Positions 2,014 through 54,894 of a stretch of DNA of 64,000 nucleotides are shown one piece after another; positions within the stretch are counted from its first letter, which is position 1, and each line of letters begins with the position of its first letter. Below the pieces are notes generated by a model, which ran no database searches, was not told the DNA's origin, and saw only the letters and a program-made list of their open reading frames with translations. Both the position numbers and the translations under genes were made by a program. The stretch comes from Undaria pinnatifida (Eukaryota; Sar; Phaeophyceae; Laminariales; Alariaceae). Where the stretch lies: NCBI GenBank assembly GCA_012845835.1, contig JABAKD010000002.1:11940120-12004119 (forward strand), given 5' to 3'.

Positions 2014-5000
2014 ATGTTGTACCTTAGCATGTGCGTGGTGGACTTGACGTCACAACTCAAGTCGGCCGCACCGGAGCTGCTGCCTCTTTGGCTTCGGTAC
2101 GGCCGGCAGGTGCCGGAGGAGCTCGTTCGTGATGTCTACTTGGGAGGGGTGAGGAACCACAGACGTACTGCTAATTGCACGCCTGGTATAAAACACACAG
2201 GTATACTTGGTACAGGTAGCATACATTGTTCATCGCCATTGCATTGCGGTATATGTCTCCCGGCCCTCAACCTAGCCCCGACCGCCTGGAAAAATGTGGG
2301 TGCTCACATTGCTCCTACTACCGCTCATTCTGCACATACTGCGCATACACTTTGAACCCTTGCCACTCAAACCGCGCATACAACCGTTACCGTCCAGACC
2401 CTGGCGCGTGTGAGGTTGAGTGAAGAGCTGGACCGTGCGTCGCTGAACGAAGCATGCAAGGAGGTGCGTTCGGTACGCTTCCTTTCGTTTGTGTGTTGTC
2501 TAGCATCTGTTTGCTGCGTTGGCCAGGATTCGTGAAAACGTGCAAACTCGATTCAGAATGCCACCACTGTGCTCCCCCCCCCCTCCCTCCTTCCCCCTCA
2601 GTCCGCTTCACAAGCAGTTCTTAGTAGGACGAAGCTCACCCACCATGCAACTCGCCGAACGCCTCACGGCGTTTCACGGGTGGCACAACCAATGCCTCCC
2701 TGGTCGGTGGAAACCCGACGTGTTCCGTTCCGGAATTGTAGTGGTGCGAGGGTCTATGGTCTGACAGACTACGGCCATTCATGATAATGACTGCACCCCA
2801 TTCCCCCGCCCCTCCCTGCCACGTTGCACTTTAGGCGATGTCGGACCTTCCGGAAGCAGCGGCGACAGCTCTGGAGTCCCTCCTGTGTCTTCAGCTGAAG
2901 CTGTCCTACCTTTCCACTAAGACACCTACCGCGCTGAAGGAGTACACACACTCAATGGTGAGGGGTTGCTGAGGCATTGAGTTAGAGCCCGGGAGGGAGG
3001 GTGTTGTTGAACCCCCCCCCCCCCCTCTCCCCACCCCTACCCCTTCCGCCCTCTATTCCTCTAACACCCCACCCCACCAGCCGAAGCTAACGGAACTTTG
3101 CACCAAGACTCCCAACGCGCAGAAGGGGTGCACACACTCAGCGTTGAGGGGTTGCGGGGACATGGCTTACACTTGAGGCCAATCTGCGACCTAGGGGTGG
3201 CGAAGTTAATGTGTGACGTAAAATGATCGACGTTTTTCGTAGGTAATGCACATGCCACAAGTTGTTGGGGGCAAAGCAGACGTGATAAAATATTAACACA
3301 CAATTTTCATAGAAGATTGACAGCACCCAGACCATGCGGGTTGTCTTGCAATATAGTTGACTCTGCTTGGAATCTCGCAATGGCCAGAACATCGGTGGCA
3401 TCGTTCGGGGAGTGGAGGCAGCTCTGCTGATCCGTCTTATTAGATTATCGACATTCTTTAGATCAGTTCCTGTAAAGCTAAACTTGTACCTGGTGCAGAT
3501 TAGGCAGATACATTAAAATGATCTGTGCGACCTGTGCAGTGATCTGACCTGTTTGACATGTGCAATTGGTTGACGCTTTTTGCAATGGTTGCATGTTGTG
3601 CAGATCACTCGGATCCTGTAGATGGCCAGCCCCTGCGGAACTTGTACAGACGACGATGCGGATCATCCGCGAAAATGATCCGTGTTATATGTAGAGTGCT
3701 CTGTCAAAATGATCGGTGTGATATGAACAGTGACCCGTGAAAACAACCTGTGTGGTTTCTTTGATCTGGTGAGTTATCTGATACGTCCGACGTGTGCCAC
3801 GGTGGGCTCTGTTTGCAATGGTTTGGCAGGACGCCGGCGGCATCGCTAGGCGGGTGGAAGCAGCTCTACTGGTCCGTCTTTCTTCGGAGGAATCCTTTCC
3901 GTGCAAGGATAATGCGGCCTGCGTGCTGCCCATCTTAGCGGAGCACCTAAATCTAACTTTGCAAAAGGAAGACCCGCAGACTTGGAATGCGGTCACCACG
4001 GTCTTCAAGCGGGCGCACCCGTGGGCGGTGAGCGACGTTCTTCTTGGCGGTGGTCGGGGGTGTTGGTGGTGATGGGGGTTTTGGTGGTAGTGGTGGTGGT
4101 GGTGGTGGTGGTGGTGGTGGTGGTGGTGGTGGTCACACACGACGTGAGGCCTGACGTGCTGCAATGACTTGACAAAAATCACCAACGCTCTCAAACCCCT
4201 CTTATCCCCTCTTTCCTTCCCTCCCTCCTCCCCTCCCTCCCTCCCCACCTTCATCCCCCCCCCCCCCCCCCCCAATGGTGCTCCTACTGCGATGATGTTA
4301 ATGTTGCTGCCTGCCACAGGTTCGAACAGAGTGTCTGTTGGCGGAAGGATGCGATGACCGCGTCACCGTGCCCTACAGTTCCGGAAAAACGACGAACAAG
4401 TACTACTGCTCGCCCGTGCCAACCCCCGAGGTGGTGAGCCGTTCTTCGTGCACAAGCAGCTCCTCCAGCTGGTGAGTGAACCATGCCATATCACGGTGGA
4501 GGGTATGGGGGTGTCGTGTTTAAACACCCTTGGCAGGTGGTAGGATAGGCTTCCACTAAATGGTACCTGGTAGTCGCTAAGTTACCTGATAGGTGCTTGG
4601 AAAGTGAAGCAGTAAGTGTCGCGTTGAAAAGTGTAGCATGTCTCAACCGAAGGAGCATCCGTTCCCCAGCAACAACACATTTGTCAGATTTTCCCTATGT
4701 CACATGGCGAGTTTTGCATCGATGTAATGAGACTGCATGGGAGGCGGCGGCTGCAACCCTGACTCTACGCCAACTCTATCCTTTGCTGCTGCGTGTTTGT
4801 AAGTGCTTGCGTGGCAATCGTACAGCGACCTTACGTCTGTGTGTGCTTGCGTTGCACCCTAACACGTGTGCTTGTTTGCCTGTACCACACCCTAATCCTA
4901 AAAACGTTGCAACAGGCGAGTTTTCGACAGCGCCGACTCTGCGCGGCGAGAGCTTCTCCAACACTGGGCGCTTAAGCCAAAGGCCTGGAACGAGCAGACG

Positions 5001-8000
5001 TCAGCCGACCCGAGGGAGGGGGCAGGGGAGGGAGAAGAGAAGGAGAAGGGCGGGGTGAGGGGGGAGGATGACAACGGCTCGTTCTCGAGCCGCATGGGTG
5101 ACATCCGAAGTCGACTGCTGGGCGTCCTGGGTATGGACCACAGCACAGCGGAGGTACGGTTATGCTCACGTGCACGCGTGTGCGTGTTTCTATCTCAACC
5201 GAGAGTGGCTGTAGCTACCTATCTTTGGGCTTAACATTGATTTACTCCGCCTACGGCGCTATCGTGCGAGAGGGAAACCGCTGTTGATGCGGTAGACAAG
5301 CTTGTCAGAGCTGTCGACACAGAAATGAGCATAATGCCGCGGTGGACATAGCCAACATGCGCGAGCGTCGCTGACGGGCTTGCTTGCGTCGTTTTTTCGC
5401 TTGGTTGCAGGTGTTTCTCACTCCATCGGGATCGGACGCTGAATTTCTGCCAATGGCGCTTGCACGCATCAGGGCACGACGGCTGGGCCACAAGGTACAC
5501 AGAAAGGGTGATTGTTGCATGTGATAAGGTACACAGGACACAGGATATGGTACACAGCACAGGATGAGGTACACAGGACAGGATAAGGTACACAGACAGG
5601 TTGATTATTGCTAATCATAAGGTGCGCAGCCGGGGTAATTGGCGCATAGGTAGTCAGCCGTATCACAACGCCTGTGTCGCAGAGCCTACCCTCGTACCAC
5701 GTCGTGCGAAAAGCCCGATCGTAGGCAGCCTGTTCCCTGATCACGACCGTGTTCTCACTTTTATACTTCGCATCGTGTTTATCATCTCTCCGAACTTCCG
5801 AAAAATATTCAGCTTTTTTTTTTCTTTTTTTTTCATCCTCCGGCGGATGGGAAAAATAAGGCTCATTATTTTGTTTGTTTGCCCTCCGACGATGTGTGTG
5901 TGTTCTTCACATTAAACCGTTCTTCTACTCGTCGACATCCAGCACACCCAGTGTCCGTACTGATTCTTCACCCTAGAAAGATCAGCTCTGTGGTCACAAG
6001 CTACGACACAGAGATAATGCATCGTAATGCATTCGACAACGCAATGTCATGCCCTAGTACTGGGTACGACAGGCACAACATACATGCGTCAGCAACAGAA
6101 ATACATTGGAAGAGAGAATACGAAATAAACAAAAACAAAAACAAAAACAAAATAATAATAAGAAAACATATAAAAACAAAGATAAAAATAAAACAAAAAT
6201 GAAACAAACAAAATGAAGGGAAAATCGAAGAAACAACCCAACCGGAAAGGAGAGCCAAAGCTCGGAAAAGAAACATAATAAAAATAAAATAAAATAAAGT
6301 AAGGTAAAACCAAAATAAGATAATCCGAACACGAGCCAAAAACCTGGACACGCAAGGAGGGAACAAAGGGGAAAGAAATACCCCAGAAAAAGAAGAAAAG
6401 TGCTACGTACCTACTAGTCGGCCTGGTACCTTGCTACCCTGTCTGCCATCTCCTTCCTGCCTTCGTCCACCGCGGTCTCCCTTCTATTCCTCCTGTTGCC
6501 CCCCCTGCCCCCACTCCCTTGGACGGCTTTCCTTCTACTCCTCCTGTTTCCCCCCCGCCCCCCTTTGTGTTCTTCTCATTAAACCAAAATACCTTGTAAA
6601 AGAGAGAAACAACGAAAGAAACCAAGACAAAACAAATAAATAAATAAAAAGGGGAGCCAAAGCTCGGGAGATAGAAACATACCCCGAGCATGAGCCAAAA
6701 TGGACATGCAAGGGGGAAAGAAAGGGAAAGAGAAAAAATACCCCGGAAAAAAGGAAACAAGTAAAAGAAGGAAAACTGGGAGGGCCAAATAAAACAGGCT
6801 CGTCACCTACCCACCATGCAAGACTCCCTTCATAAGGATAAGAAGGGGAGAGAAAAAAAGAAAGAAAATAAATAAATTCACGGAAAAATCAAAGTACCAA
6901 GACATCACATTCCGAGCAGCCGTAGCAGTTGGCGGTACGAGTGGCATAGATAGAAAGGTTCCACCTACTAGTCGGCCTGGTACCTTGCTACCCTGTCTGC
7001 GGTCTCCTTCCTACTTTCATCTACCGCGGTTTCCCTTCTACTCCTCCTGTCCCCCCCCCTGCCCCCATACCCTTGTGCGGTGTTCCTTCTACCCCTCCTG
7101 CTGCCCCCCCTCCCCCCGTTCCCTTCGACACCACCCACGGCGGATGCGCGGCGCTGTCTACTCAGCTTTGCCTCATCCTCGTGCCACCTGCCCATGAACC
7201 GTTCAGCTGCTTCGAGGACCCCCCGGTACCACTTGCCCGCCTTTTTTGCTGCAGTGGGCCACAGCGCGGTCCCAACTCCAAAAACTAAGGGGGAGTGTTC
7301 CGTTGATCCCTCGTTGGCTTTGAACACCCTAAGGTCCTCAGCTATGGCTCTAGGCCAAGTCTTGAGTTGTCCGCCTGGTTTCGGGTTCTCCCCACCAGCG
7401 ATCGTCCCGAACATCAACCGACGGGGCAATCGCCCCTTGTGTTGTCGCACCAGGGCCCCGGCAAAGAAGAGCCGCCGTTTACGGATGGTCGTTTCGATGC
7501 TCTCGCATCGTGTCAAGCGTAGATGCATTCCGATAAACCAGGTAACAGGTAAGCATCAACCAACCCTCACAAAAACGCCATAATAATGATGATTTATGAA
7601 TTTGCCCGAATTACCCCCTGTTATGCTATTGTGTAGACTATACTGCAAATGCTCAAATGAATTTTTTAAGGGCAGACGACAGAAAGTGGTTTACCGCTGC
7701 CAGTCAGCGCCACCGTGCGGTACAGCGGAATGCACCTAGGTTTTTGACTCCGATCCGCGACGCTGATTGGTCAACTCAGCCTTATACCGGTTTTTGGCAC
7801 CAACTCCTTGCGGTACATCGTACCGCGGCTTATCAGCTCGGCCACGGTCTTCTGACGTGATCCATACCGCTTTCTGTCGCAACGTATACCATGCGGACCG
7901 ACTTTGCCCGAGGCTCTTCACGCCCAGCACACTTTCAAATTCCGACCGAATCTCAACCATGGGCGCCACGAGACATAGCATGCATAGAACTACGCGCTGT

Positions 8001-11000
8001 CATGTTTCGGATCCCTTCAGAGCAATCATTGCAACACCCCTTCGGCACACAGCAGTAGTACGAACGAACCGCTGCTCAACCATAGATAGCTCGCCTACCC
8101 CACGTGCACGTACGTATGTTGTTGTTTTCTCACATTAACTCTTGTCAAAAATCTAGAGTCCGTGGTCACACAAAGGTGCTGGAGCCCTAGGAAGATCCGA
8201 AAAACCAAGTGAAATCAAAATTCGTCAGGGAAATACTACGCTTTCCCGCCTAAAAACGCACGATACGGAAAAAGGCGCACAACAAGTGAAAAGGTCAAAT
8301 GTGCAAACTGAACTCACATGGCCGCGGGTATCCACTCAACTACAACATAGAGTTCACCCGTCCCCACAACTGAGTAGACAGCGCCGCGCATCCGCCGTGG
8401 GTGGTGTCGAAGGGAACGGGGGGAGGGGGGGCAGCAGGAGGGGTAGAAGGAACACCGCACAAGGGTATGGGGGCAGGGGGGGGGACAGGAGGAGTAGAAG
8501 GGAAACCGCGGTAGATGAAAGTAGGAAGGAGACCGCAGACAGGGTAGCAAGGTACCAGGCCGACTAGTAGGTGGAACCTTTCTATCTATGCCACTCGTAC
8601 CGCCAACTGCTGCGGCTGCTCGGAATGTGATGTCTTGGTACTTTGATTTTTCCGTGAATTTATTTATTTCCTTTCTTTTTTTCTTTCCCCTTCTTATCCT
8701 TATGAAGGGAGTCTTGCATGGTGGGTAGGTGACGAGCTTGTTTTATTTGGCCCTCCCAGTTTTCCTTCTTTTACTTGTTTCCTTTTTTCCGGGGTATTTT
8801 TTTCCCTTTCTTTCCCCCTTGCATGTCCATTTTGGCTCATGCTCGGGGTATGTTTCTATCTCCCGAGCTTTGGCTCCCCTTTTATTTATTTATTTGTTTG
8901 TTTTGTCTTGGTTTCTTTCGTTGTTTCTCTCTTTTACAAGGTATTTTGGTTTAATGAGAAGAACACAAAGGGGGGAGGGGGGGAAACAGGAGGAGTAGAA
9001 GGAAAGCCGTCCAAGGGAGTGGGGGCAGGGGGGGCAACAGGAGGAATAGAAGGGAGACCGCGGTGGACGAAGGCAGGAAGGAGATGGCAGACAGGGTAGC
9101 AAGGTACCAGGCCGACTAGTAGGTACGTAGCACTTTTCTTCTTTTTCTGGGGTATTTTTTTCCCCTTTGTTCCCTCCTTGCGTGTCCAGGTTTTTGGCTC
9201 TTGTTCGGATTATCTTATTTTGGTTTTACTTTACTTCATTTTATTTTATTTTATTATGTTTCTTTTCCGAGCTTTGGCTCTCCTTTCCGGTTGGGTTGTT
9301 TCTTCGATTTCCCCTTCATTTTGTTTGTTTCATTTATGTTTTATTTTTATCTTTGTTTTTTCATTTGTTTTCTTATTATTATTTTGTTTTTGTTTTTGTT
9401 TTTGTTTTTGTTCATTTCGTATTCTCTCTTCCAATGTATTTCTGTCGCTGACGTATGTATGTTGTGCCTGTCGTACCCAGTACTAGGGCATGACATTGCG
9501 TTGTCGAATGCATTACGATGCATTATCTCTGTGTCGTAGCTTGTGACCACAGAGCTGATCTTTCTAGGGTGAAGAATCAGTACGGACACTGGGTGTGCTG
9601 GATGTCGACGAGTAGAAGAATGGTTTAATGTGAAGAACACACACACACACACAACTAACCAACTCGCGGCTACAAACTACAGCGGTTGGGCTGCCTGCAT
9701 CGTACGAACCGCACGGTAATCGTGAGTATAGACGAACGCGCCTGCTGTCTGGAGTGCTGTCAGAGTGACGACCCGCGGGCATGCAGTGAAACAAGAGCAA
9801 TGGAACCAAAAACCACAGTACAGATATCAATGATCGCCCCTCCTTCCCGAGCTATTTGACAGGTTGCAGCGCAGCTACGACGCCCGTCCCTGAAAATTGA
9901 AATTTGCGGCGGGTCGTTCCCCGTGAAGGGTATACAACTCTTCTACAAACTCTACAAAAATCAGTGCCGGAAGTAACAAGTTGTACTACTGCCTCGTAAA
10001 AATAACCCTAAAAAAAAAGACGATCGCTGCTCTCATGATGATGATGTGCGTGCCGGTCGTGGGTCTCCGTGTGCCATCCTCCTGCTGTGGTTCTCCGTGG
10101 CCGCCTCATCGCCTTAGCTCACTCGGCCAGCTCCTTCGCACTTGCTCTCGTTCACACTCATTTCCAGTCGGTTCCCCTTCTCCCCCGTCCAAAAAAAAAA
10201 AAAAAATGCTCCACGCAGTTTGCGGTGCTGATCTGAAAAACAAAAATTCTCGTTCAGGGAGAGTTCAATCCGTCTCTTCCCCGCCCGTCGACGGCCAGTC
10301 GCCCTCCTCCTTCGTCGTCGAATCCAGCCTCCTGCCGGCGCAGTTCCCTCCACGCAAACCGAGACTGCGCCGTAGCGTGGCTCGTGGTGGCGCCTGCCTC
10401 CGCGCACGAGCATCCCGATTAAGCATTGCTGCTCCGCCGCTGCTGCCTAAAAAGACGCGCGAATCGTAGGTGACCATGCCTAACGCACCACGTACGACCC
10501 AACTCTACCGCCACGCCTAAGCCTCGTGGCCACACGCAGCAGCAAGAAGGTATCACTCCTTGAGGGTGAGTCCGGCCTTACACCCGCCAGAAAGACCCCC
10601 CCACTCTCGCTACAAGCCTGCTAGGGCATGCTTCGCAGCATGCCTTACCGAGGCGGCAAGGGGGAACGAAGACAGTATGTATGTATGTATGAATGGCGGA
10701 GAAAGGGGTGGGACGAAGGACAAAGGGGGGGTGACAGTCCTGCTACACGCGTACGACCCTCATGGCCCACACATGCACCACCTCGCGTCCGCCTTGCGCG
10801 TTCGTACACCGCATTCTGTTGAAATCCACGCAGGGAGAGGACGCCACCACTTAAACTTGGTATTTAAGAACTGGGGCTCACTTGAGATGCCCGGCCTTGA
10901 CCTATAATACACTACCCATACAACAAAACCAATAAAAGATGCCCCATTGGAAAATAAGAAAAATAAGAACCGAGCCTCGGCAAAAATAAATATCCTCAAG

Positions 11001-14000
11001 TGATGGTGCCATTTGTAGTCGTACACTACACTGCTGGTTATGTACGAAACAACGGCTTTTTCGATTGTTCAAATGTGGACCTTGATTTAACGGGAGCATA
11101 TTGTTTCATGTAGTCTTCTACATGGCCTTCTATATGTAGTCTTGTAGCCATGCTGTCTGCATGATGTGGCGCCGATGGTTGAGAGTCGGTCGGAATTTGA
11201 TAGGGTGCGGGGCGTGAAGAGCCTCGGGCAAAGGCGGTCCGCATGCGACAGCAAGCGATATGGGTCACGTCAGAAAGCGGCGACGGCGAGCTAAAAAGCC
11301 GCGGTACGATGTACCGCAAGGGGTTGGTGTCAAAAACTAGTCCGAGGCTGAGTTGACCAATCAGCGTCGCGAATCGGGACTAAGAAGTTAGGTGTATTCT
11401 GCTGTACCGCACGGTCGCCCGGAATGGTTGCGGTATACCGCTTTCTGTCGTCTGCCCAACTTTAGTTTTGGGAGGGCGATGGGCGTGCTATGACATCGGT
11501 CGTCGTACTTTGCACCGCCTCGGCTCTACATTTATCCCTTCCCTCCTACCGTATTATCGTGTTCTCACTGCAAATATCACCTCGTTTACACCTCAAGTAA
11601 ACATTTTGGGGGGAGGGCGATGGGCCTGCTGTGACCTCCATCGTCGGGCGTTTCACCCTTTCACTCTGTCAATGCCTTCACCACATGATCGTGTTCTCCA
11701 CCGTATACGGTATCCTACCCTTCATTTGAAGGAGGCCGATGGGCCTGCTTTGATTTCCATCGTCGTGCTTTGCACCGCTTAACCCCTGCAACTCCACCAC
11801 TACCTTTCTCGTGTTGTCCCTGTACTGCATGCCTCGCCCCCTCAGGAGGGCGATGGTCCTGCTGTGACCTCCATCGTGGTCGCAGCTGGAGAAGTGGGCA
11901 GCGGGACGGCGGGAGCGGCGGGGGGGCAACACTTCAGCGAGCTTACACCGAGGGGCGTCCCGGGCTACCCTGAGCGCAATGTAAGAGAAACGCTTGGACG
12001 CAGCGTAGTCCGCTCTATCCTAAGATGTCAGGAGATAGCACTTTCACCCTTTGCCAGGCACCAAATGTGCCTTCATTTTATTTGGCTAACGCCAGGGTAC
12101 TAGGTTTTATTGTGGAACGCTCGGTCCTACGCCCTTGGCTGAGCACGTTTTTATTCCCTTGCTCCGACATGCCTCCTATTGCACCTATTCTGAGTAGCGA
12201 CATGTTTCGTGTTTCATTGGAACACAGCAAATCAACGTGTCATGTCATGCACTATTTTAAGACCCGCTCTCGATAAAATGCTAGACTCTCGATCTGGATA
12301 AAAGACAGTTGCTTACCGTAGCACCGACTCTCTATTAAGAAAGCGGGACACTGGCTACCTATAGATATACGTATTTTAGGAAAGGGTGGGGTTCACATTG
12401 GCTTTGGTAGAGCCCCTCCGGAAATTATCAATTTTCTGCAAAACTTTCGTCTGAGTTTTTGTAAGTTCGTTTTTATTGTATTGAGAGGGTCGGTGGTGTG
12501 TAGTTTGGTGTTTTCGCGCGGTTGAGTCTTTTTTTTGCTGATGATGACGATGATGGTGAAGATGATGATGATGCTAATGATTGCGATGCCAACGGTGATG
12601 ATGATGACGATGGTGGTGATGGTGATGACGATAGTCATAACGATGGTGTTGGTGATGATGATGATGATGATGATGATGACGACGCTAATGGTTGCGATGC
12701 CGATGATGATGATGAATTTGGTACAGGTGAAAGGCATGCCTGCAGGCGACGTGGTTGTGGTACAGATGAAGACCCGTTCCAAGAGCGGCGCCTTCCTGTC
12801 TTGCGAAACCCAAGTCACCAGGTATATATAATATGTACATGCACACGCGTGCTGCCATGCATCGGACAGGTCGTTTTTTTTCTTTTTTTCATCCTCCGGC
12901 GGACGGGGAAAAATAAAGCTTTAGCTCACCACACTTCCACGTATTTTCATACGCGTCATGTGTCGATTTAACTCAGTAGCCCAACGCTAGCTGGCGCACC
13001 CTTCGGATCCCATTGTAGGTATAGCGCAAGCTGTCCCTATCAGTGGTCTTCGTTACAACCCCGGCAGCGCAAGCGGACAGATCATGGTGTAGGTGGCGAT
13101 TTCGACCACGATACAGATCGCGATACAGATCACGATATGGATCAAAACGTAATACACGATGTGGATCCTACATTTGGCGATATGAGATGTTGTGCGAGAG
13201 CGTTGCTCCGAAAGCGGCGCTTTCCTGCTTTTCGAAGACCTCGTCGCCAGGTGTATACATATTATTATTGTTCTGTTTGCCATCTCCCAATGTGTAGCGC
13301 TTGTTCAGTCACACCGTCAACATACAACGGAACTGCTTATACACGTTTCTACGAGATTTAACGCATTAGACAGAGGACGATCTAGATCATCTGTATAAGT
13401 TTACCGTTATGAAATGTTGTTCATGAGCGCTTCTCCAAAAGCGGAGCCTTTCCTGCCTTGCGAAGAACTCGTTACCAAGTACGTACGGCATTCGTGCGTA
13501 TACGCGGTCTTGAAGCTTTTTCAGCCGATCTGCGTTGATGGTGGTGCTTCATTGGAAGTACTACCTGCAGGAGCAGATACGGAACACAGGTTGAACCCAG
13601 CACTTTAGGTCGTGCAGTCCCGAAGGAGTTGGGGCGGGGGGGGGCTCATTCCATGAATAGCGTTAACCCTCGCATCTCAGCCCGGACGGAGCACGTGGGT
13701 TTTTCACGGACCAGGTAGACATGACGTGTACCAGGCGCGAAGTGTCTTGATGTCTTGAAGCAAATCTCATTCAGGGTGAGTGGGGGGGGGCGTGGTCGTT
13801 ATTTTGATAAATGAGATGCATGGAGGGTACCTTGCCATGACTCAGTCTCTCTCTCCCCCCCCCCCCCCCCCAATCGTGCCATTCCCTCCATTGCCAGCCT
13901 CGTGCACAAGACTATGGCTTCCAGTCCGACGAGCGTGGTGGTGGTTCACTTTGTGGCTGGGTCTAAAACAGGGATACGCTTTCCCTCGGTAAACACCTTG

Positions 14001-17000
14001 ACAAACCTGCAAGGCCAGTACGGGGAGCGGCTCGTGGTGAGTCACCCATGGCACTGGCTGGGCAAAGTTACCGTTTCTTTTGACAAGTTTTTTTCTTGTC
14101 TCGATTTTATTTTCCATCTTCTGGACGTGGTCACAGGTGTCGCCCCTTCTCCTCCCCCCCGGTACGTATACACGTGCCTTTATTTTTATCGTGCAGAGGG
14201 TACAGTTGTTCCACTGCTTGTCGATTTTCATCGAATTACCACGACTTATTGGACACGTGACTGATGGCGTTTGCACGATTAGCTTCTGAACAAAGGCAAG
14301 ATATCGATACCGCTACGTGCAGCGGTCGCGTACAGAACGCGCCACCGTACCCGCCGCCAACCTGCAAAACGAACGATATATATCGCTAGGCACCCGCACT
14401 GCAGAATACCTGCAACTCTCGTCAAATTGTGTGCGTTTTCTTCGGTCGGCGGCGGTGGCGGCGGACGCATCGTCCGGCTCTCATCCTCGGCCTCGAAAAA
14501 AGTCCCAGATTTTTTTTAGTAATTATTCTAACCACGTCAGCGGTGAGTTCGACGAATTTAGGCGGCGTGAAATGGAGAAAGTCGCGACGAATTTAGGCGG
14601 CGTGAAATGGAGAAAGTCGCGTCCGCTGGTAACATTATGACAAGACTGCAAGGACTCGTGACTGGCCGAGCTCTGCCGCCGCGTTTCTGCCCTGACGCTG
14701 TACCCGGGCCCCAACAGGGCTAAAACCCACCCCCCCACTCCGTCTTCCCCAGCAACACTTGGATGCATGCTGGTAAAATTAGTCTCCTCCCCACCCCCTT
14801 AATGCCCCCCTATTCCTCAAACACCCCCCACAAGTCCCAATACCGCCCACAACCCCAATACCGCCCTTTGACCCCAATACTGCCCATGACCCTAATAACA
14901 CCATATCCCCAATACCGCCCATAACCTCAAAATACCGCCCACAACTCCAATACCGCCCATAACCTCAATACCGCCCATAACTCCAAAACCTCCCATAACC
15001 TCAATACCTCCCATAACCCCAATACCGCCCATAACCCCAATACCTCCCATGACCTCAATATACCCTCCGTAGCTCCAATGCCCGCCATAAGGCCTATATC
15101 GCCACAGCCCTAAAAAAATCCGTAACCGCAGCACCCCCCATAAATTCACTATGCCCAAACCCATAACCCCAACAACCCCTATAACCTCAATACCTCCTCC
15201 GCAACCCCGCGACAGGTGGTTGTCGATGCGTGTCAGCTACGCTCGGAGGCCGGGAACATTCGCAACTACGCGTCTCTTGGGTTTTTGACGCTCGTCACGG
15301 GCTCGAAGTTCTTCTGCGGCCCGCCGTTCTGTGGAGCTGTTGTGTTTTCTCCGGCGGCGATGGCTGAGCTAGAGGAGGGGCACGAGCACCTCCCGTACGG
15401 CCTTCAGGACTATTTTACCCGACACGAGGTACGCATAGACCTATCCTGACAGGGCTGCGAGTTGCCAGACGGAACCCTTCGGGTCGGGCTGCAAGTTGCC
15501 TGGTATTGCTTGTAGTCGTCGACTATAATACCTTGGTAGTTATTTCCTGGCGAGGTATTATTAAAGCTTGAGGCGGGGCACGAGCACCTCCCGCACGGCT
15601 TTCAGGGCTACTTCACTCGCCACGGGGGTGCGTGAAATTGTTGTATTTTGCCTGAGAGCTATTCTTCAAGGCTTTTCACGGATCGGGTCGATTTTCGCGG
15701 GTCTGACCCGACCCGAACCTTGATATTTGAAGACCTCTTGATCCGACCCGACCCAACCCGCGAGCTTTCCAACATCTCCTGCCCCGACCCGTGAGGTTAT
15801 ATATACTGCAGTCTAGTCTTTGTTTTCCGGGTCGATTCACGACCCGTGAAAATCGCTGGTTTTGTTCGACTCCAGAGTGGAGTGTGTCCGGTGACCACGG
15901 TCGGATTTATTGCGATGAGATAATGTGACAACAGCAGTAACATGTCGCACTATGAGACCCCTTCGGGTCTTCAGAGGAAAACCAAGTCAAAAACAAATGA
16001 CGATTGCGTCATCGGTGACACTAGGCAGCCCCAGCGGCCGCGGTAGGGTGTATGTCCAAACTGAAATCCTATAATCAATAGAAATGAATTTTTATAGTGC
16101 GGGGGGGGGGGTGTACTCGATGTTCATGCATGGCCGCAGTCGTATGACTGTATGGTATAGAGCTTCGCATCCCTACGATGCCGGGACGAAGCATGTCGGG
16201 TTTTGGCCGACCAGGCAGACATTGCTTGCACCAAGCGCGGAGCGCCGTGAGGTGTTCGGCGAGTCGCATGAAGGGTGAGCCGCATCCTACTAAGAACCGC
16301 GTGCGACTTGAATGTGGATGGCAGCTTCAACGAGTAAATTTATTTTCCGGTATGGCCACTTGCAGAGACCGCAATGGGGGTACTATGTAACTGCTTCGTG
16401 GAAAACCTTGCAGGGGGGGCCGTGAAATTGAGTTTACCGCCGCGGCAGGGTGTGTGTCAAGCTGAAATGTTGTTGTCAATAGTAATGGAAGCTTTGTAAG
16501 GGGGTGAGGTTTAATTTGCCGGTGTTCACACTATTAATCTGTCAAGACATCCATGTTTCTTTATGTTCGAAGGAAACGGTAAGAAGCTGTATGTACCACC
16601 CGCGTATCATCGCATATGGTGCTAAAGTCTGGTGCTACAGGCTCTGCCTACAGCGCTCATTTGAAGGTCGCACCCACCTTTTTTTTTTCAAGCTACATTT
16701 AGGTCCCAAAAAGCGATCTAGTGCCATCTATGGCGCCAAAAACGTGAGTCCCTCGATGGGCTTCCTCTGTCTGAAAACGTTTTTCGAGTTATCGACGTTG
16801 GAGCTCGTGCCGCACATATTGTCGGATGGCCAACAGAAAAATGAAAAAAATAAAATAGCGGTGTTGTCGTTCTCTGCCCTCCGATGATGCAGGTGGACTC
16901 CCGGTACCCCACACTTCGCTCCAGCCTCGCTGGCTGGGAAAACCGAGGTCTTCTGCTGCGCTGGTCGAGCGCCCTGCACAATATGGAAGCGGTGAAAAGC

Positions 17001-21790: not shown

Positions 21791-21799
21791 ACAGCAAAT

Positions 21800-24560: not shown

Positions 24561-24576
24561 ATTGCAGCGGTAGTTA

Positions 24577-38700: not shown

Positions 38701-41700
38701 GTGTTAAGCGGGGTTACGTACTGTAATCGTTAACTTGTGCCCGTGCTTTCCCCCTCAATACTATTATACAATCATGTTCCAAATGGTTGTATATAACCTA
38801 TTCCTCACTGTTTTCCCTCTATATCCGACTACGTAATTTGCGTCCCAAAACGATCACTGGTAACGTTCAGTCCTTTAGAGTCACTCACCCTTTTGATGAA
38901 CAATGGTACGGGGAAGGGGGGAGCAGTCTTTCCGTTCGGAACCTGGAGGCTAACCTCGGCCACAGCCACCAAATCCGGAGCGGAATCCGCCCCCTGTTTC
39001 CCCTTGTCGTCCGACACACAGAAAACCCTGCAGGCCAAAGTGACCAAAACGCATATAGGTAGTAGAATGGGGGTCACACAACAAACTATTAACTCATACA
39101 TATTCAAGGCATCGATTAATATCCACCTTCGATGGAGACCATATGGAAGACTGACCAATTGAAATCTGAAGTTTGTGGATCATCATTTATAATCTAAACA
39201 GAGGAGGCGTGATTTCGTTGGTAGAGGAGAAATATAGATAATTCAGGCTACTGTAATTGAAGACACTAACTAATTTCCACCTCCAAGGGAGACGACATCA
39301 ACGTGTTTGCGTGATATGATATCAACTTTGGTTCGGTGGGAGATGGGTAGGAAAACACATTATACTATTAACAGTATTGAAACCGTCGAACGCCACAATC
39401 TAAGGCCAACCCACCCCACGAAAAATCAGCCAAAACTTACTTCTTCTTTTTTTTTTTTTTTATCCTCCGGCGGATGGGGAAAAATAAAGCTTTAGCTCAC
39501 CACACTTCCACGTATTTTCATACGCGTCGTGTGTCGATTTAACTCAGTTGCTTTCGCAGCCCAACGCTAGCCTTACTTAAGAAATGTGTTTTCCTTTCGT
39601 TGTTTTTGGATTTCTAACCAACATTTTTCGTGGGTTGGTTGGCCTTGGGTGATGATGTTCTTCGGCTTCAACGCGATTCTTATATATTTCCAACCCAACA
39701 TAATTCGCAAATCGCAAATGCCCTATTGAGATTGAGTGCAGGAGGTTATTGAAAAGTGTACAAGACCGAGGTTGAGTATACTATAAACACTTGAAACGCA
39801 ATACAGCTGTGAGATCGGAGATTTTGTCGAACCTCATTTTTGCAAGCTGTGTGATACTCCGATCGCGCGTATTACGGGTTGTGTGTCCTCAGTAAGGACA
39901 TTGGTCGGCGACTCCCCTTGGAACTACAGTGTAGCTTGTACCACGGTAAACAAGGTGCTCATAATCAATCTGTGCAAGGAAAGTATAAAACCCCTTTTTA
40001 AAGGGGACAAATCTGATGGCTGTGGAATGCACCAGTTTTTATCACGTATATACTGTAGTCGTATGACCGGTGAGGGAGGGCGGGGTTTCAAGTGACGGGG
40101 GGGTAGGGGCGGGTAAAGGGGGATATACTTTTTCATGTTTTTGGGGTCGCATAAATGAACAGGAGCTTACTGCACGAGTGGTGCTACATCTAGGCGATGG
40201 TGGGGGTAGCGGGGAACGGGGGGTAAACTGGAACTCGAAGGCCATATAAATGAATTGGAATTACTGTATAGATGGCTCGAAAGGTAAAGAGGTGATATCA
40301 CCTGTCGGGTAGTGTTTATAACTCTGGCCAGTTTTGTTTTTTTTGGCGGGGCGGCGGGGGAGGGAGGGGGAAAAGTGTGTGTGTTGGGGGGCGGGTGGGG
40401 GGGGGGGAGGTGGATGGGAGCAAAACATACGTGTTGTTTTTACGTTGCGAAACGTTGGTGGTTTCTTATTTCCGTATAATATTAGTACTACCAATGGTGT
40501 TCATGGTACATATGTTGTTGAGTTTGTGTTTCTGTATATACCCTGGTGTAAATTAAAGGTTACCGTCTATAAACATATATATTAATATACGATGGTGTCA
40601 CCTGAGCTATAGACGACCATTGGGGACCTTAAGCCATTTGGGCACACCTGCCTGGAATATGTATACACACCCCTAGGGGTGTATTCAAGTCACATGTAGT
40701 CCGGTCGCCCCGGTGGCGTATCAGGTTATCCTCGAGCCTGTACAGGTCAGTTTCGTGAGTTCGAGTCCCGCCGAGTGGATACTCGTATATATTCGTAGGG
40801 ACTTTTTCTCGCGCACAAATTGACTTGCGGAAAGTGCGAGAGCACGAGTCAGCAACAAATCGACGAGCAGTGGGATTGCTGAACCCTATGCGTGATAAAA
40901 ATTGAAGGCAAGAACCGGGGGGGAAAAGGGACGACACCTGCGACCATGGCTTGTCCAGAAGCTGGAAAGCAGAAGTGGTTTAAAAATAAAATAATTAAAT
41001 AAAATAAGCAATGCACCCCTACCCAAAAAAGATTGTATTTTTGTGTACACCCTCTGATCCCACCGTGTATGATTTTGGGCTAGGTTAGTTAGGCCTTAGG
41101 TTGCTGGTCGGGTTGGCACCTGGTACCAGGTATATCGGTATATTACTAGTAGTAGTATACCAGGTATTAAATAGGCTATTACACGCCGCTAACAGGGGTG
41201 CATGTTTTTTTTTTACACCTGCCGCATAATCGAACAACCAAGTCTGGTTGTGTGTGCTAGAACAACCATGTCTGGCTATCTATGTGACGAGCAGATTTAA
41301 TAGAAGATAATCTTTGAAACGGTCAGGTTGGGCTTATAAAGCCAATGGCCAACGCTCAAAAAACAATTCCGGATTCATGAACAGCAACGGAGGAACAAAA
41401 TATAAACCAAAGCGCCTGCGAGCCATCTACAGCCGTTTTAGTATTGTAGAGGGGGAAAAAACGAACGCCAAAATTGAACAAAATACGTCAAAACAGAATT
41501 AATCGAAGGAATAAATTGACGAACAAAATCGATGATATCGCAGCATCTACCAGCGCAACTCATCTTCACGAACCCTTGTGTATTTGCAGAAGCAGTAAAA
41601 GTACTACTGTATACGGCTTGACCCAGCTTCGACCAAAAGGTTGATAGTTGGTAACGCTCACGAACTCCTTACTGCACTATCGTTTCCCAGCATTTTCCAA

Positions 41701-44655
41701 CCGACCGGTTCGGGTCACGGTTAGGATTAGGGTCAGGAGGCATTCTACAGTAGGGGTTTGCCCTTTGTTCCCTACAAGGTTCTCGACTTGAAGCGTTCGA
41801 TACCCCACCCATAAACCGATTTTGGGAAAACGAAAGCAGTGCAACCCGATGCAGAATTCCATAACCCCAGGTGTTCCAACAAAAAAAATCGCCAAAAATC
41901 GCCAAAAATAAGAAAATGCCCGTTCCGACGATTTCTGGGTTAAGGAAGGAGCCCCGTCATTTAGAAAATATTTTAGCCAAAAAAATGTATACCCTATCGT
42001 AGCACGCGTCGATGCATGCTACTAACAGTACTAATAGGTCCGGTAGAGGTGCACCGATGTATTGATGAGTCTCCTCGCCTGAAGGGCTCCACACACTAAC
42101 TGCCAATGACTGAGAAAAACGAAATCGCACCCCGACGAATAATCCCATGGCCTAGGCATACAAAACCAATTACGCCGCGAAACAAGAATGCCATTCCGAC
42201 CATGTTGGGTTAAGGAGCCCCCTCATTCACAATATATTTGTAGACAAAAAGTGGTATACGTTAATTCCTCTATCCTACCACGCGTCTCAAGGTTATGGTG
42301 AACGTTAGGGTAAGGATTGGGTGGGGGTAAGGGTGGGCGTCAGGGTTAGGGTCAGGGTTGGGGTCAGGGATATAGGGTTTATAATCACGTACATTTAAAC
42401 TGCCAGTATTTTGTCCGTGCTGGGCCAAGTCGTCTACACGGTTCTGCAGCTGCAAAAGCGCAACTCATCTACGAAGCTTGCTGTCATATCGCAGGATTGG
42501 CGCAAGGCGTACCACCATGAGATTGCGCCGTCGCCGCTGTCTACGAATCCTAGATGCACAGGACGACACGGGTGCTGTACAACCTATGAATAAAACATTT
42601 GGGACTGACGGGGCTCCTCGATTAGATCAATTAGATCAAATTGATCAATTAGATCAATTAGATCAATTAGATCAATTAACTGAATTAAATCAATAATATC
42701 AATTATATCAGTTAGACTAACTAACCACCTGGGACCCAATACACCAGTTGTGTTTTACAGTATTTTATAAAACCATTCTAAAGACGTCAGCTGTGACAGC
42801 ATTGTTCGTTGAGAAACTACAGCATACAGGACATGGAGTTATTCATCAGGTTGCACTATAACTTTTGGCGAGAGTCAGCTGTTGTGTGGGGTATGGAGTC
42901 TAGTATAGACCTTCTCAACTCAGGAGCCTCAGAATTTCCAGGTCCACCCCCAGCGTACAACTAATCCAATAGTAGAATGCGTCCGACGCGTACGATACTT
43001 ACCTGTGATCTTGGCCGCGCTTTCCTATGCGAGCCCGCATGCTAAACCCCCAACGTATGACAGCCCGCAGCCAGATCATCTCGAACCTGATGGCATTTGG
43101 GGAGGGCGAAAAGGCGTGCCGTATGTAATGTGGATGATTGTGACTGCAGAGTATAATAACGTACTGTACCTGGCACATGATACCTGGTGCGTATCTGCTC
43201 GTCAGTTATAACTTCGCGTTAACCCTACGCAAGTCTGACGTTGGTTCAGCGGTAGGCTGTTATCCTTGCTAGTGGTTGTTCTGGAGATAAAATCCCGGGT
43301 GGTGCATATAATAATATTATTTGCCTACTTCGAATAGGCATCCGTGTACAACGGCAGCTTGTGCTGCCGGAGTAGTAACGGGGACCGCCGGTAGGGACAG
43401 CTCGCGCTATTGTTATCGCGGGAACCGAAGGACACGCCTGTTAGCGCTGGATTGCGAACGCAATTGAGTTAAATCGACTCCCGACGCGTATAAAAATACG
43501 TGTAAGTGTGATGAGCTTGAGCTTTATTTTTCCCGTCCGCCTAGAGGATATTAAAAAAAAAATCTTCGAGTACTCGTAGGATCTTTTTGTGAGCCTCCTT
43601 CCGTCGCCAACAGCGCGAGAGCGTGAGTTAGCAATATCCGATGAAATCGACTGTTGTATGTAGTGGGAATGTCGAACCCTCTGCGCCATAAAAAAAAATG
43701 CACGTATCGGGGCGGAAAAGGGACGACTCCCGTGACGACGACGGCTGTCCAGAGTCCAGAGTCCAGAAAATGTAAAAGCGAGATAACACACACAAACAAA
43801 CAAACAAACAAACGCTGTACTCATGCAAATTCGAAAAAATGTTGTCTCGATCGCTGCAGTGGGCGATGGACCATGTTTGATACAATTTTTTACACTCGTA
43901 CATTTTTGTAAGACACTCATCGATAGGCGCACCAGTACCTTTTTCGACTGAAAAAAATATCCCACTCTAAATTCCAGTAGTTTTTGCTCCAGAACGACTC
44001 CCATGCACTCTCTCGACTGTCGGACATTAGACTTGGCATCACATCGGTACACCAGCAGCAACAGCTGCAGCACTACAGCAGTAGTACGCTCATGACACGA
44101 TTCTCACCCTCACACTTACCAGTCAGTCAGCACCTCCACATCATCAGAGGCCTGAACGCTGCCGCTCAGCCGAGCCCTTCACCACCCTGTCATAAATCAA
44201 TTTGATCTCCAAAACCATTCTTTACTCTCATTACCGGTATCAGATACCTCCTAATCTAACAGCAGTACCGGCACTGCTGTATCGCAATTAGTTGCAGCAG
44301 TAAACCACCACCACAAGTATACCAGTACACCTGTGATATGATGCATACCCTTACCCTTACCAGTCAGTCAGCTCCTCCACATCAGAGTCCTGAAAGCTGC
44401 CGTTCAGTCGAGCCCTGCGCCACGTCGCCTGCCAAATATCGAGGCCGGACACACCCTCCACAATGGTCGGCCCTTCGTAAAACTCCTCAAATGCCAAGCC
44501 CACGACACTGTCAATATCCGTCTCCTGCATTGCTCGCAGCGTGGTCCCCTCAGGCAACGGATTTGGTGCGAATGTAAACATTTCTTCGTTGCCTCCTTTT
44601 GAATCAACCTCCCCATCCCCTGCTGCTGTTGTTGTTGCTGCTGCTGCTGTTGCTG

Positions 44656-44703
<48 letters not shown>

Positions 44704-46745: not shown

Positions 46746-46749
46746 TAAA

Positions 46750-48590: not shown

Positions 48591-48619
48591 ACAGGGGGTA
48601 TGTCACTCGAGCAAGTGAC

Positions 48620-49845: not shown

Positions 49846-52800
49846 TCAGGACAACACGCAGGTCTTGGGGCTACGGGAGGTATAGTCGGGGACCTCGCCA
49901 CCGTTTACTCTCTCGTCGTGCCGTCTGTGGTTGACGATGCTCGCCTTCACCACTCCCCCCACAGCGTCCAGCTGCGACCTTGAGTGGGCTATGCCCGAAA
50001 GATGCCCCGCTATTCGATGGAAGCACGCGTCCACCTGCATTGGGAAAATATAGGGTGAGGCCGCCCTCGTCATGAAACGCGGTTGATGTGTGCAGTATAC
50101 TACGCTGAAGTATTTTTCTTATTGACCATGGCTACCCGACAACTTGCAGCACGACGATGATGAGTTTCAAAGTCGATCGCTCATACACATTCCCATAAAA
50201 CTGAGAAAAAATAAACAAGACAAAATCAAAAAGAAAGGAAAACCTATATGCACAAACCGTAGATCCCTTCTGTGACTACTTCCGGGTTGGCATCGAGCTA
50301 CTCCTATCGTGTTTTTGGTTGCTATCTCAAAGGGCCTTTGAAGGGGTCCGTTAAACCCTTTGGTTGCGGCGTTTTCTTTTTCGACGAATCATCCCACGGT
50401 AGGGGCTTGCATTTTTTGCGCCCAAAAAAAGAAGGCGTTTCTGTCCGGTTGAGCTCCTCAAGTGAGGAACTTCCGGTTTTGGTCTAATAATTTTACGAGT
50501 GTACTCGGATTTACGAGTGTGTTCGGATTATGACTAGTGCATGGAAGAGTTGGTCGGATTGTGCGATCGAATGCCTTCGAAGTCATGTAGTATTGGGTGA
50601 GATATTGAGCTAGCTCCTCATGTTGGGAGCTCAGAAAAATACTCGAGTCTGCTGCAACCCTGCTAGCGTGGGATAGCTCCCAGGAATACCGAGAACGTAA
50701 ACGACATGGTACGGCTCTGATAACAATATAGGGTAAGCGTGCACCCGTGCGATAATCAACATGCGGGTGCGCGTGTCAAATAGCCCCCATCGCCGCGCTT
50801 TGGACAACATCCCCCATCCCCTGCCCCCGCAAACCGGGCTACTCCGCGTGGCGGGCGCCAAAAACCGTCACGTTTTTTCGACAGTTTTTTTGTCGCCTTT
50901 TAAGTCCCCAAAGAGTTTAACCCACGTCTTCTCGTACCTCATCTTCGGACTTGGCGGGCATGAAGAAGGTGTGCATTGTACAACATTTTACATTCTGTTG
51001 CACTGTTACTGGATCTTAGTAAAGAGGGTTGAGAATAGCAAGCCCGCACTTCCCGCTTTTTAGGCCGCTATTCTTAGGTTTCAACACAAGGCCGCTGAGG
51101 GTAAATATGTACGGAGGCGTACTAACACCCATTATACATCAGAGCGCTACCGACGGACGGATAGACGCGCGCGTGCATCGGGGGGGGGGGGGGGTCACCA
51201 CCCATGCTTCGCGATGGAAACGAAAGCAGGTATCGACCGGGAGAAGGAAAGTATACTAGCGACCACGGCTTGTCCAGAAGGTCGCTGAGCGTAAAACCCC
51301 CTACGATTCGAACTGGTAAGTAACAGCGATGATCCAAAAAATAAAAAACATTCAAACAGGTTAAACCTGCGCCTTCCCGTACCTGATCTCCGGGCTTGAC
51401 TGGCATGCAGAAGGTGTACGCACAACGTTGCATATTCGGTTGGGTTGTGTGGTTAATTGCTCTTCCTAAAAGTTTAAAGTTCACATAACCAAACCGTGTT
51501 TATGTCTTTAGAAGGTGGCCATGGTTGAGTTACATCAGAAGGGACGGCACCTGCGACTCCGGTTTTATCCACAAGGCCACCATGGGTAAAACCCTGTACA
51601 ACTTGAGCTAGCAAGTAAACGTGACTATTCAAAAACAAAGCAAACCCTTGCCCCCCCCCCCCCCCGTACCTGATCTCCGGATTTGGCCGACATGAAGAAG
51701 GTGTACATTCCGTTGTCGTCCGCAAATTGATGGGCGCTTACTGTTCGCACGGCTCTTAGGTGGCTCAGGTCACCTGAAACGGCCGGGGGGGGGTGATTCA
51801 GCGCCATGTACGGGGCACATTGACTCGGAAATCGCATTAAATAACATATTCCAGGTACAGTACAGGACACCAATGTGAAGGAGCATGGCAATAAGAGAGG
51901 CAGGCTGACATTTACAATTGAACAGAAGAAATCCTGGATCCATTTTGCTGAAGTGTGTCTAAAACATACCCTCGCTCAATAAGAAAGCCAAGCAGGGTCT
52001 GTGTTTCTCTTTCTTACGGAGCTGTTGTTGTGCTTGCCATCCGACAACGCGTGGCGTTAGTGTCAATCGCAAATCGTGACAAAACAAACAGATATTGAAG
52101 ACCACTAGGACTGCAAAAGGTCCAGGGTGTGTTATTACCATGCTTCTGTACCGGGAGCTTCAGCGCCAACCACTCACACTCAGCCGCAGACAGAAGATGA
52201 AAACCAAGGGAAACAACCAAATACCTCGGCCTTACCCTCGGCCTTGAATAAAGCATGAGAGCTAACATTATTGAGCAATTATATTTGCAGCTAAACTAAG
52301 CTAAACTCATTGAGAGTTTTCGATTGGACGCTAAATTTGCCAAACACTTCTTATTGGCGGGTGCCTCTTGTTCTCCCACACCGACATGGACGTGGAGCAG
52401 CATACGGGTGAAATCAGCTACCCGTTACCCGCTATTTTTTAGTGAATTGCTTCGAAATACCGTCGGATTATGTGACGATTCGTGGCGTCATTGTTTGATA
52501 CCAGTGTGCTGGTGCATAAAAAACGGTTGATTGTCGCGAGGATCGACGATCGTGATCATCAAGTTCGCCTTTTTTTCATCAAAGATCGCCGAAAACATCG
52601 AGATGGGAGATTGTTTTCTGCCGCTCTTGTTATAAATATTCCACCGCCCTAGGCTTCGTGCACCCGATCTCTAACATGACGACGTACGGCATGGTGTCTC
52701 TGGTGTCTCACAGTGCTGTCTCCCACTCGTTCCCGGCGATGGCGACGTACGGGTTGGTTTTGATTGGCGAAGGTCTTCACACGGCGACATCAACCGTCCA

Positions 52801-54894
52801 AGCCATAGCCCAAACCTTGAACTTGAATACGTTAAGAGAGGAACCTAAGCTCTCAATAATGCACGTTTTTGTATTGGAATTGTAAACTTTTTTTATTGGA
52901 CGAGAAGCACGTGTATGCAGTATACTTTTCATTTTTATTGGAAGCCATACTTACTAAACGCCACTGATTGGACGCCGAAGTTTTCTTCACACTGTTCGTT
53001 GGCGGATGTCCCGCACTGGTCTCTCACATTTGTTCCCGACCATGGCGACGTACGGCATGGTTCCATTGGCGAAGGTCTTCACCACCAAGCGATACCAATC
53101 ATCTAGGTTCTGAAAACTGTCGTAGTTCGTGATGTCGTAGCACATAACCACCGCCTGTTTATAGGTTGAATCACAACGCGGAATCGAAAAGCAAGCGTTG
53201 GGGTTATTTTGTTTGCAGTGTGTATAATTTTTTATATGTCAGGTCTAAAACGTGGAGTATGAGCTTCAGCGTCCATCATCCCCGGTTTTTATTTTTATTT
53301 CGTTTAAAAATTGCCCGATGTTTATTACCGCACTCGTGCATTCGCTTTTTCGCGTTGTTTTTTGTGCTGGCTTCTGTATCCCCACCGGAGATTCTGGTGG
53401 TGATTTTATTGCGGGTGATCGGTGGTGCAACGTTCAGTTAGTTGGCTATACGACGGTAGCTGCCAGGCCTTTTCACAATAAATACCGGAGTAGTCCCAGA
53501 AAAAAAAAACACTTTTCGTTCTCTCTCATTCTCGAATCTCACATGTGCCCCGCCGATGTACTTGGACATCATCTTGCTCCCAATGCTCTGCCCTCCGATA
53601 TCCCATATTTGTAACGCCACATGGACTTCCCCTAAGAACGACAAAGATTAAGATTAAGATCGATAGATCGCGCACATCGGACAGATCAGGTCCACATTTC
53701 ATTATCCAGTTCACATGATAAAGGGTGCACACGTCAGGCGCATCAGATAGATCCCCATTTTTATCATCTAGGCTTTCCGGGGTGGATGCACACATTTGAC
53801 AGCTCAGATCCCCATTTCACGATATAGTTAGTTCGAACGAAAAATATTGCACACATCGACAGATCAGATCCTCATTTAATTATATAGTTGCACAAGTTGC
53901 AGACATCGACAGATCAGATTTCAATTTCATTACGTTATACAGTTGGAACGACAAAAGCTGCACACATCCGATAGATCACGTATATCCTCGATATGATCTA
54001 GAGCTTTCGGGGCAGCTTTCTCACATCGAACAGATCAGATAGATCCCAGACAGATCCCCATTTCATTTTCTAGCCATTTTGGGGCAGATCGATCTCTATA
54101 TATTACCTGCACGCTATGACACAGTTCCCATGCACATGTCTGCCAGGGGTGATCTGAATGATACAGCTCTCCTTGCACAACGTACATCACACGAAAAATA
54201 CAAGATTTACATAAAAAATGTTGCAGATGTTGCGTATGTCGGACGTTTCAGATCCCCGTGACATGTAATAGATTTTTTGGGGCAGATACGCCCCTCATGG
54301 TTATACGATCTGCACGGTGTATACGCCATGCGATCCGGGTGGGGTCTGCATTTCACGACTCGAGCGCAAATGTGCACCGGTTGAAATCTGCGTGATGCTG
54401 CTCTTGAACAACCTCTCACAACGGCACGTACAGAATCTAGATGATATGCAAGATCGTGAAATGTCCGCTTTGTAAAAGATTCGCGTTAAAAGCGGAGATT
54501 CTCCCCCTTCTTCCTCAAGAAGCCGGTGCTACGTGAGTGCTGGTGCTGGTGGGGGAGTACTACGTACGCCGTGCAAATACTACCCCCGCCCCCGGCATCA
54601 TCGGGCGAGTGTTTGATCGGAGGCAAGGGAGGACACCTCTAGAACACGCCACCTAACCTGAATTCGGCTTCCTCAAAACGCAAACATCCTTGCCCGCTCG
54701 TATACCTGGTAAAAAGAGGCTTTCAAAATGGAAGAATCCGAGCACGTTCTCACCCAAGCCTCACCTGGTAAAACGATTCGTTTCACGAAAAAGTCCAAGC
54801 CGATGGTTTGCTTGTAAGATTGCGAGAAATCGTCTTGGGCGAACCTAGTCGCGATTGACGTCTTTCCTACTGTGCCATCACCCAGCAGAATCAC
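49846..54894 (-). CDS. RAB28: RAB28-family small GTPase (5 exons located, first short exon missing)
   Basis: Exons in order: 54894-54765, 53631-53543, 53154-53028, 51773-51670, 50034-49846. Phases 1, 0, 1, 0 join exactly. Motifs: P-loop GDGTVGKT, switch [13 protein letters not shown] (RAB28 has this in place of the usual DTAG), NKCD for guanine binding, SAK, and C-terminal CVLS, a CaaX-like prenylation signal. [16 protein letters not shown] and YDITNY are diagnostic of RAB28, a membrane-trafficking GTPase linked to cilia/flagella and the BBSome/IFT in other eukaryotes. The located part codes for about 212 residues; family proteins have about 220, so only some 8-15 N-terminal codons are missing. 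A possible first exon is 56575-56552 (MKEETTQA, phase 0, GTACGG donor); support is weak. Confidence 0.93.
50390..50670 (+). repeat. Dispersed MITE-like repeat, copy 3
   Basis: It runs ATCCCACGGTAGGGG, CTCCTCAAGTGAGGAACTTC, CGAATGCCTTCGAAGTCATG, GAGCTAGCTCCTCATGTTGG, GGAGCTCAG and ends CTGCTGCAACCC. It is the inverted match of 690-940. It lies just downstream of the third RAB28 exon 4 donor copy. Confidence 0.6.
50890..51430 (-). pseudogene. Two decayed copies of RAB28 exon 4 3' end plus donor
   Basis: The copies near 51366-51430 and 50930-50985 read ACACCTTCTGCATGCCAG...GGAGATCAG|GTACGGG and ACACCTTCTTCATGCCCG...GAAGATGAG|GTACGAG. The exon has ACACCTTCTTCATGTCGG...GGAGATCAG|GTACGGG. The intron flank 51250-51360 also repeats 51545-51655, giving a unit of about 295 bp. 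Both donors still look usable; an acceptor in phase is not evident. Confidence 0.85.
52320..52795 (-). pseudogene. Two decayed copies of RAB28 exon 3 3' end plus donor
   Basis: 52705-52790 repeats GTGAAGACCTTCGCCAAT, GTACGTCGCCAT, GGGAACGAGTG(T)GAGA from the exon 3 end. 52322-52394 repeats a shorter part plus the intron segment CCGCCAATAAGAAGTG. Both are downstream of exon 3. The donor region differs from GTGAGAG in each. Confidence 0.8.
53680..54420. repeat. GATC-rich repeat array, RAB28 intron
   Basis: A unit of about 60-70 bp (GCACACATCGGACAGATCAGATCCCCATTTCATNATCTAG) is repeated seven to eight times with drift towards 54420. It lies between the first located RAB28 exon and the next. Related blocks are at 3440, 18990, 22560 and 32390. 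Confidence 0.8.

What the first reader, a model, noticed from the sequence alone, without database searches (positions are those of the whole stretch)
2014..54894. Splice-junction segments are tandemly duplicated into introns in all three genes
I count about 17 of 26 located exons whose 3' end plus donor, or acceptor plus 5' end, has one to three degraded copies nearby. All donor-side copies lie downstream (PLP exons 3, 7, 9, 11, 13, 17; GNAT A, B, C; RAB28 exons 3, 4, 5). All acceptor-side copies lie upstream (PLP exons 4, 8, 15, 16; RAB28 P-loop exon). Copies include intron flanks, so the unit straddles the junction. The pattern implies that introns lengthen by repeated local duplication across exon-intron borders, with the copy joined to the exon body kept under selection. 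It occurs in unrelated genes, so it looks like a genome-wide process.
Basis: partly seen in the sequence, partly recalled or inferred. Interest (0 to 1): 0.92.

Follow-up and report, generated by a model that had tools for sequence, protein, structure and literature searches.

The report
Exon-edge copies scattered through kelp introns
In the kelp Undaria, pieces of exon ends have been copied into the neighbouring introns and are slowly decaying there; the copies are real, but they look mostly like the visible part of a general local-duplication habit of this genome, similar to the 'mirages' known from amphioxus, rather than a process aimed at splice sites.

Summary
The window is from Undaria pinnatifida; homologue-based gene models give 26 exons. 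Fifteen of 26 have a decayed same-strand copy of an edge nearby, not 17. The direction rule holds in independent genes too: of 181 splice edges, donor copies lie downstream in 21 of 92, upstream in 0; acceptor copies upstream in 7 of 89, downstream in 0. Any duplication spanning a junction must give this rule, since the copy joined to the exon body stays the edge. Strong junction targeting is not supported: in independent genes, edges (12 of 134) and intron windows (110 of 1255) match alike, and exons are hit as often as under rotation (26 of 116 against 23.2); a two- to three-fold excess per source remains possible. The window is richer than the rest. Copies decay neutrally; 12 of 22 cases show further degenerate units. 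The nearest known kind is the amphioxus 'mirage', a minisatellite-like tandem duplication across exon-intron borders. Unexplained: homology stops within about 27 bp of the junction on the intron side, sharper than simple tandem duplication predicts.

The parts
2014..21409 (+). PLP-type gene, 17 coding exons: about 2028-2148, 2398-2463, 2835-2957, 3830-4027, 4320-4471, 4916-5153, 5411-5494, 11846-11980, 12727-12821, 13898-14036, 15216-15428, 16893-17035, 17365-17551, 18795-18852, 19558-19772, 20458-20551, 21282-21409 (stop follows)
   Evidence: spliced alignment to Pylaiella, Ectocarpus and Laminaria proteins
37362..44530 (-). GNAT acetyltransferase gene; exons A 44361-44530, B 43003-43086, C 38889-39027, D 37362-37496
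   Evidence: spliced alignment to the annotated Undaria protein P0242; the five-exon model (with 37174-37209) translates to it exactly; PF00583
49849..54894 (-). RAB28 gene; exons 54765-54894 (P-loop), 53543-53631, 53028-53154, 51670-51773, 49849-50034 (first coding exon not placed securely)
   Evidence: spliced alignment to human RAB28 and to Laminaria P0121; PF00071
2892..2977 (+). source block, PLP exon 3 end plus donor
3078..3163 (+). copy of PLP exon 3 donor edge, downstream (77% over 86 bp; GT now TT)
3385..3438 (+). copy of PLP exon 4 acceptor edge (source 3827-3880), upstream
5585..5611 (+). weak copy of PLP exon 7 donor edge
   Evidence: score 39; score 43
11470..11778 (+). three upstream copies of PLP exon 8 acceptor edge (source 11845-11877): 11470-11518, 11611-11657, 11730-11778; array spaced 114-141 bp
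   Evidence: two of the three also
13207..13480 (+). copies of PLP exon 9 donor edge (source 12778-12828): 13207-13257 (score 42) and, weak, 13434-13464 (score 39) within the repeat 13178-13252/13405-13480
15565..15627 (+). copy of PLP exon 11 donor edge (source 15367-15429); keeps two outgroup residues that the present exon has lost
17642..17859 (+). copies of PLP exon 13 donor edge (source 17482-17570): 17642-17695 and 17771-17859 (GT now AT)
21670..21695 (+). copy of the end of the PLP coding sequence (source 21384-21409); not a splice junction
44093..44185 (-). copy of GNAT exon A donor edge (source 44334-44423); donor GT kept; weak residual homology beyond the block
37991..38066 (-). copy of GNAT exon C donor edge (source 38886-38959)
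37145..37260 (-). copy of GNAT exon D donor edge (source 37361-37468); the annotated Undaria model takes its last 12 residues from 37174-37209, inside this copy
54997..55041 (-). upstream copy of RAB28 P-loop exon acceptor edge (source 54853-54897); reads VILLGDSAVGKTSI against [14 protein letters not shown]
52704..52780 (-). copy of RAB28 exon 53028-53154 donor edge (source 53007-53082); GT now GG; a further degenerate copy lies just beyond
50915..51442 (-). two copies of RAB28 exon 51670-51773 donor edge (source 51665-51709): 51360-51442 and 50915-51000

Best explanation
The copies are decaying relics of local, same-strand (tandem, minisatellite-like) DNA duplications that happened to span a splice junction, of the kind called 'mirages' in amphioxus. 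A unit of some tens of bp of exon end plus a few bp of intron is duplicated, and in about half the cases duplicated again into a short array. The copy still joined to the exon body remains the functional edge; the others become neutral intron sequence and decay. Undaria gene regions carry local direct repeats throughout, so junctions receive roughly their share, with at most a modest excess. Shown here: the copies, their orientation and position rule, further units in 12 of 22 cases, neutral decay, and no plain excess at junctions in independent genes. Inferred: that the molecular step is tandem duplication (slippage, unequal exchange or microhomology-mediated repair), and that it lengthens introns.
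For: Direction: 28 of 28 copies at score >=40 lie where a junction-spanning tandem duplication must put them (sign test p 7e-9). Local pairs within 1 kb: 296 direct against 21 inverted. Clear arrays: CCT exon C29:12914769-12914948 followed by seven matches spaced 78-87 bp; PLP exon 8 with three upstream units and flank homology. Extra degenerate units in the spacer or just beyond in 12 of 22 cases, against 1 of 22 for the reverse-complement control, which was run on the spacer only. Copies are neutral: mismatches 42/346, 43/350 and 69/347 at codon positions 1, 2, 3; in the 8 window hits that could be compared with homologues, 21 amino-acid differences are derived in the copy, 2 in the exon, 8 other. 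Weak residual homology of the intron flank at group level: mean z 0.94 over 23 hits, one repeat-rich hit (z 5.9) included. No plain junction preference outside the window: rotation test 26 of 116 against 23.2, sd 4.1 (which includes the window's exons); core edges 12 of 134 against intron windows 110 of 1255. Three spacers searched genome-wide are single-copy.
Against: Under a simple tandem model with units reaching 80-300 bp into the intron and steady-rate decay, simulation expects homology past +30 in 54-73% of detected donor cases and detectable flank homology in 91-96%. Observed: 1 of 17 donor hits reaches past +30 and flanks are detectable in 4 of 23; the group-level excess is small (about 0.3-1.1 matches per 24-bp window). 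Short units explain the close boundary, but then the spacer should be more units, and in 10 of 22 cases none is seen in spacer or beyond. In this window alone edges are enriched (12 of 52 against 11 of 195). The intron-window background also holds 35 inverted matches, so part of its 110 direct ones are dispersed repeats rather than duplications, and the true excess at edges may be 2-3-fold.
Confidence: 0.67

Rival explanations
1. A junction-bounded copying process: short stretches of exon end (about 40-110 bp) with at most about 27 bp of intron are copied into the adjacent intron at a distance, as templated inserts during break repair, leaving unrelated spacer between source and copy.
For: Blocks stop close to the junction on the intron side, contrary to simulation of ordinary tandem duplication; the three spacers searched are unique in the genome; among 36 local pairs at >=88% identity and >=35 bp, 14 have matches shorter than half their spacing (several belong to one array).
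Against: Templated inserts should land on either side of the exon and in either orientation; 0 of 28 do the first and 1 of 181 edges shows the second. Further units in 12 of 22 cases point to arrays. One spaced 90% pair shows flank homology after an indel when read by eye (C13:3476000, 12941-13316).
Confidence: 0.15
2. An ancient burst of junction-spanning duplications: most are past recognition and only the least decayed exon parts are still seen.
For: Simulated old duplications (0.25-0.3 substitutions per lineage, indels 0.03-0.05) give block ends near the junction and 17-76% flank detection; few local pairs exceed 95% identity (4 of 296).
Against: Over the six settings at 0.25-0.3 it predicts 0.78-0.81 block identity and 3-39% detection; the observed mean is 0.84. 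Young intronic tandem duplications exist.
Confidence: 0.13
3. Old tandem duplications whose exon-derived part is kept similar by gene conversion from the exon, while the intron-derived flanks diverge freely.
For: Would give exon blocks at about 84% with unrecognisable flanks.
Against: The PLP exon 11 copy keeps two ancestral residues, so it was not recently overwritten; the mismatch pattern is that of plain neutral decay. No conversion tract was sought.
Confidence: 0.06
4. The copies are functional decoy or alternative splice sites kept by selection.
For: 8 of 13 aligned donor copies keep GT and 3 of 4 aligned acceptor copies keep AG (4 donor and 2 acceptor hits whose site falls outside the alignment are left out and keep neither by extrapolation); one annotated gene model uses sequence inside a copy as an exon.
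Against: 8 of 13 is about what 85% per-site identity gives; mismatch rates at codon positions 1 and 2 are equal.
Confidence: 0.03

Closest known systems
[quoted passage not shown] PMC3087553, passages read)
   Same: Direct repeats spanning exon-intron boundaries, at 5' and 3' boundaries, unit sizes of tens to about 160 bp, AG/GT often kept in copies, real exon at one end of the array.
   Different: Brown alga, not a cephalochordate; copies look older (mean block identity 84% against 81-100% between BflGb6 units) and mostly irregularly spaced; seen here in many genes, with a count against intron background; no RNA or polymorphism data.
Intron gain by tandem genomic duplication of AGGT-bearing exon segments (PMC3443670, passages read)
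   Same: Local duplication involving a splice-site-like sequence creates a second site.
   Different: There the two copies become the donor and acceptor of one new intron; here the window's copies lie inside existing introns, away from the opposite splice site.
Internal tandem repeats altering gene structure in human segmental duplications (PMC2812944, passages read)
   Same: Minisatellites at exon-intron boundaries change gene structure.
   Different: Recent and primate-specific, half of them in coding sequence; here intronic relics in conserved genes.

Membership tests
Mirages (boundary minisatellites) | repeat unit spans an exon-intron boundary | tested here: met
   23 edge hits at >=45 over 181 edges; most blocks carry exon plus up to 26 bp of intron, several stop at the junction itself; one acceptor hit is intron-only and one donor hit lies in repeat-rich sequence
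Mirages (boundary minisatellites) | both 5' and 3' exon boundaries affected | tested here: met
   21 of 92 donor edges and 7 of 89 acceptor edges at >=40
Mirages (boundary minisatellites) | head-to-tail array of several units | tested here: inconclusive
   further units in 12 of 22; CCT array and PLP exon 8 clear; in the rest no further unit is seen
Mirages (boundary minisatellites) | does not disturb splicing; length polymorphism | not testable with these tools
   no RNA-seq or population data
Intron gain by tandem duplication | copies sit at the two ends of the same intron (donor and acceptor) | tested here: not met
   copies in PLP, GNAT and RAB28 introns lie inside the intron, not at the opposite splice site (coordinates compared by eye; window genes only, and only where both neighbouring exons are known)
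Transposon (introner-like) insertion with target duplication | the sequence between the duplicated ends is a multi-copy element | tested here: inconclusive
   3 of 23 spacers searched genome-wide, each single-copy; several other spacers hold stretches that recur elsewhere in the 317 kb examined

The most novel reading that the evidence does not exclude
Exon ends themselves are the preferred source: a repair or replication process copies junction-bounded exon edges into adjacent introns over and over, so that kelp introns are in part built from, and record the past states of, their flanking exons.
Probability: 0.15. Interest if true: 0.8.

Novelty: new member of a known kind. Interest (0 to 1): 0.5.

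Why it matters
If it holds genome-wide, brown algae join cephalochordates as a second distant lineage in which local duplication across exon borders is common. That bears on why brown algal introns are long, it supplies decoy splice sites and gene-model errors (the annotated GNAT model ends inside such a copy), and it offers neutral fossils of conserved exons with which duplication ages can be dated. Several brown algal genomes are published, so the shorter-ancestor test can be run directly.

Tried and rejected
Chance or low-complexity matches: rejected, because inverted and wrong-side matches at score >=40 number 1 and 0 over 181 edges, with simple repeats of period <=12 masked. Junction hot-spot: looked convincing in the window but not in independent genes. 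The rotation test uses HMM-located exons outside the window, and some 'non-exon' pairs in those loci are unlisted exons (seen by eye), so the count was repeated with an ab initio predictor (24 of 26 known exons overlapped, 15 of them exact, with 22 false positives). There 25 of 171 exons have copies; 42 of 44 copies obey the rule, and the two exceptions appear to be a low-complexity array and a predicted exon that is itself a copy. The same call found 35 inverted matches in 1255 intron windows. The 134 edges include some from 3 kb loci with short flanks, while the 1255 windows come only from the 17 larger loci.

Donor-over-acceptor asymmetry as a sign of first-come splicing: 21 of 92 against 7 of 89 at >=40 (p 0.007), but 21 of 92 against 16 of 89 at >=32 (p 0.46), so copy strength differs more than number; not pursued. 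Transposon insertion with long target duplications: the three spacers searched are single-copy. Whole-unit tandem duplication tested by spacer and flank homology: only partly fits. Pfam scans of plus-strand ORFs did not name the PLP gene, nor did PF00155. After checking, I lowered the main explanation from 0.70 to 0.67 and raised the junction-bounded reading from 0.13 to 0.15, because the inverted matches make a mild junction excess more likely than I first wrote; the smaller rivals were trimmed to fit.
Full report
Source and gene models. The window is part of a 511.1 Mb assembly. The GNAT gene model reproduces, over all 188 residues, an annotated Undaria pinnatifida protein, and one contig's length (16,510,065) equals the published scaffold N50 of the Undaria assembly (passages of PMC7058681 read). 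I wrote a spliced aligner and used brown algal homologues found to place 17 PLP-type, 4 GNAT and 5 RAB28 exons. The first RAB28 coding exon is uncertain and not used.

Noticed in passing
window 5893-9647: Near-perfect inverted repeat inside PLP intron 7: arms 5893-7165 and 8370-9647, 97.4% identical over about 1.28 kb, loop about 1.2 kb. The arms also contain internal direct repeats.
   Followed up: no
window 61036-63670, minus strand: Reverse transcriptase ORF (RVT_1, E 6e-35) beside an Exo_endo_phos-like ORF (E 0.004, below the family's cut-off): probably a non-LTR (LINE-type) element, described only.
   Followed up: no
window 59397-60272: 876 bp tract of C and CCCT-like repeats, next to a 131 bp tandem duplication at 60327-60586.
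   Followed up: no
window 37174-37209, minus strand: The annotated Undaria GNAT protein ends with 12 residues encoded inside a decayed copy of exon D's edge, so the public gene model is probably wrong there or uses a relic as last exon.
   Followed up: partly
G000:C50 (200,775 bp) and G000:C45: Long uninterrupted ORFs matching aminotransferase and protein kinase families nearly full length, unlike the intron-rich genes elsewhere; possibly bacterial contigs left in the assembly.
   Followed up: no
window 7670-8105, 11157-11460, 57164-58671, 63941-64000: A family of related interspersed elements in both orientations, 77-93% identical.
   Followed up: no
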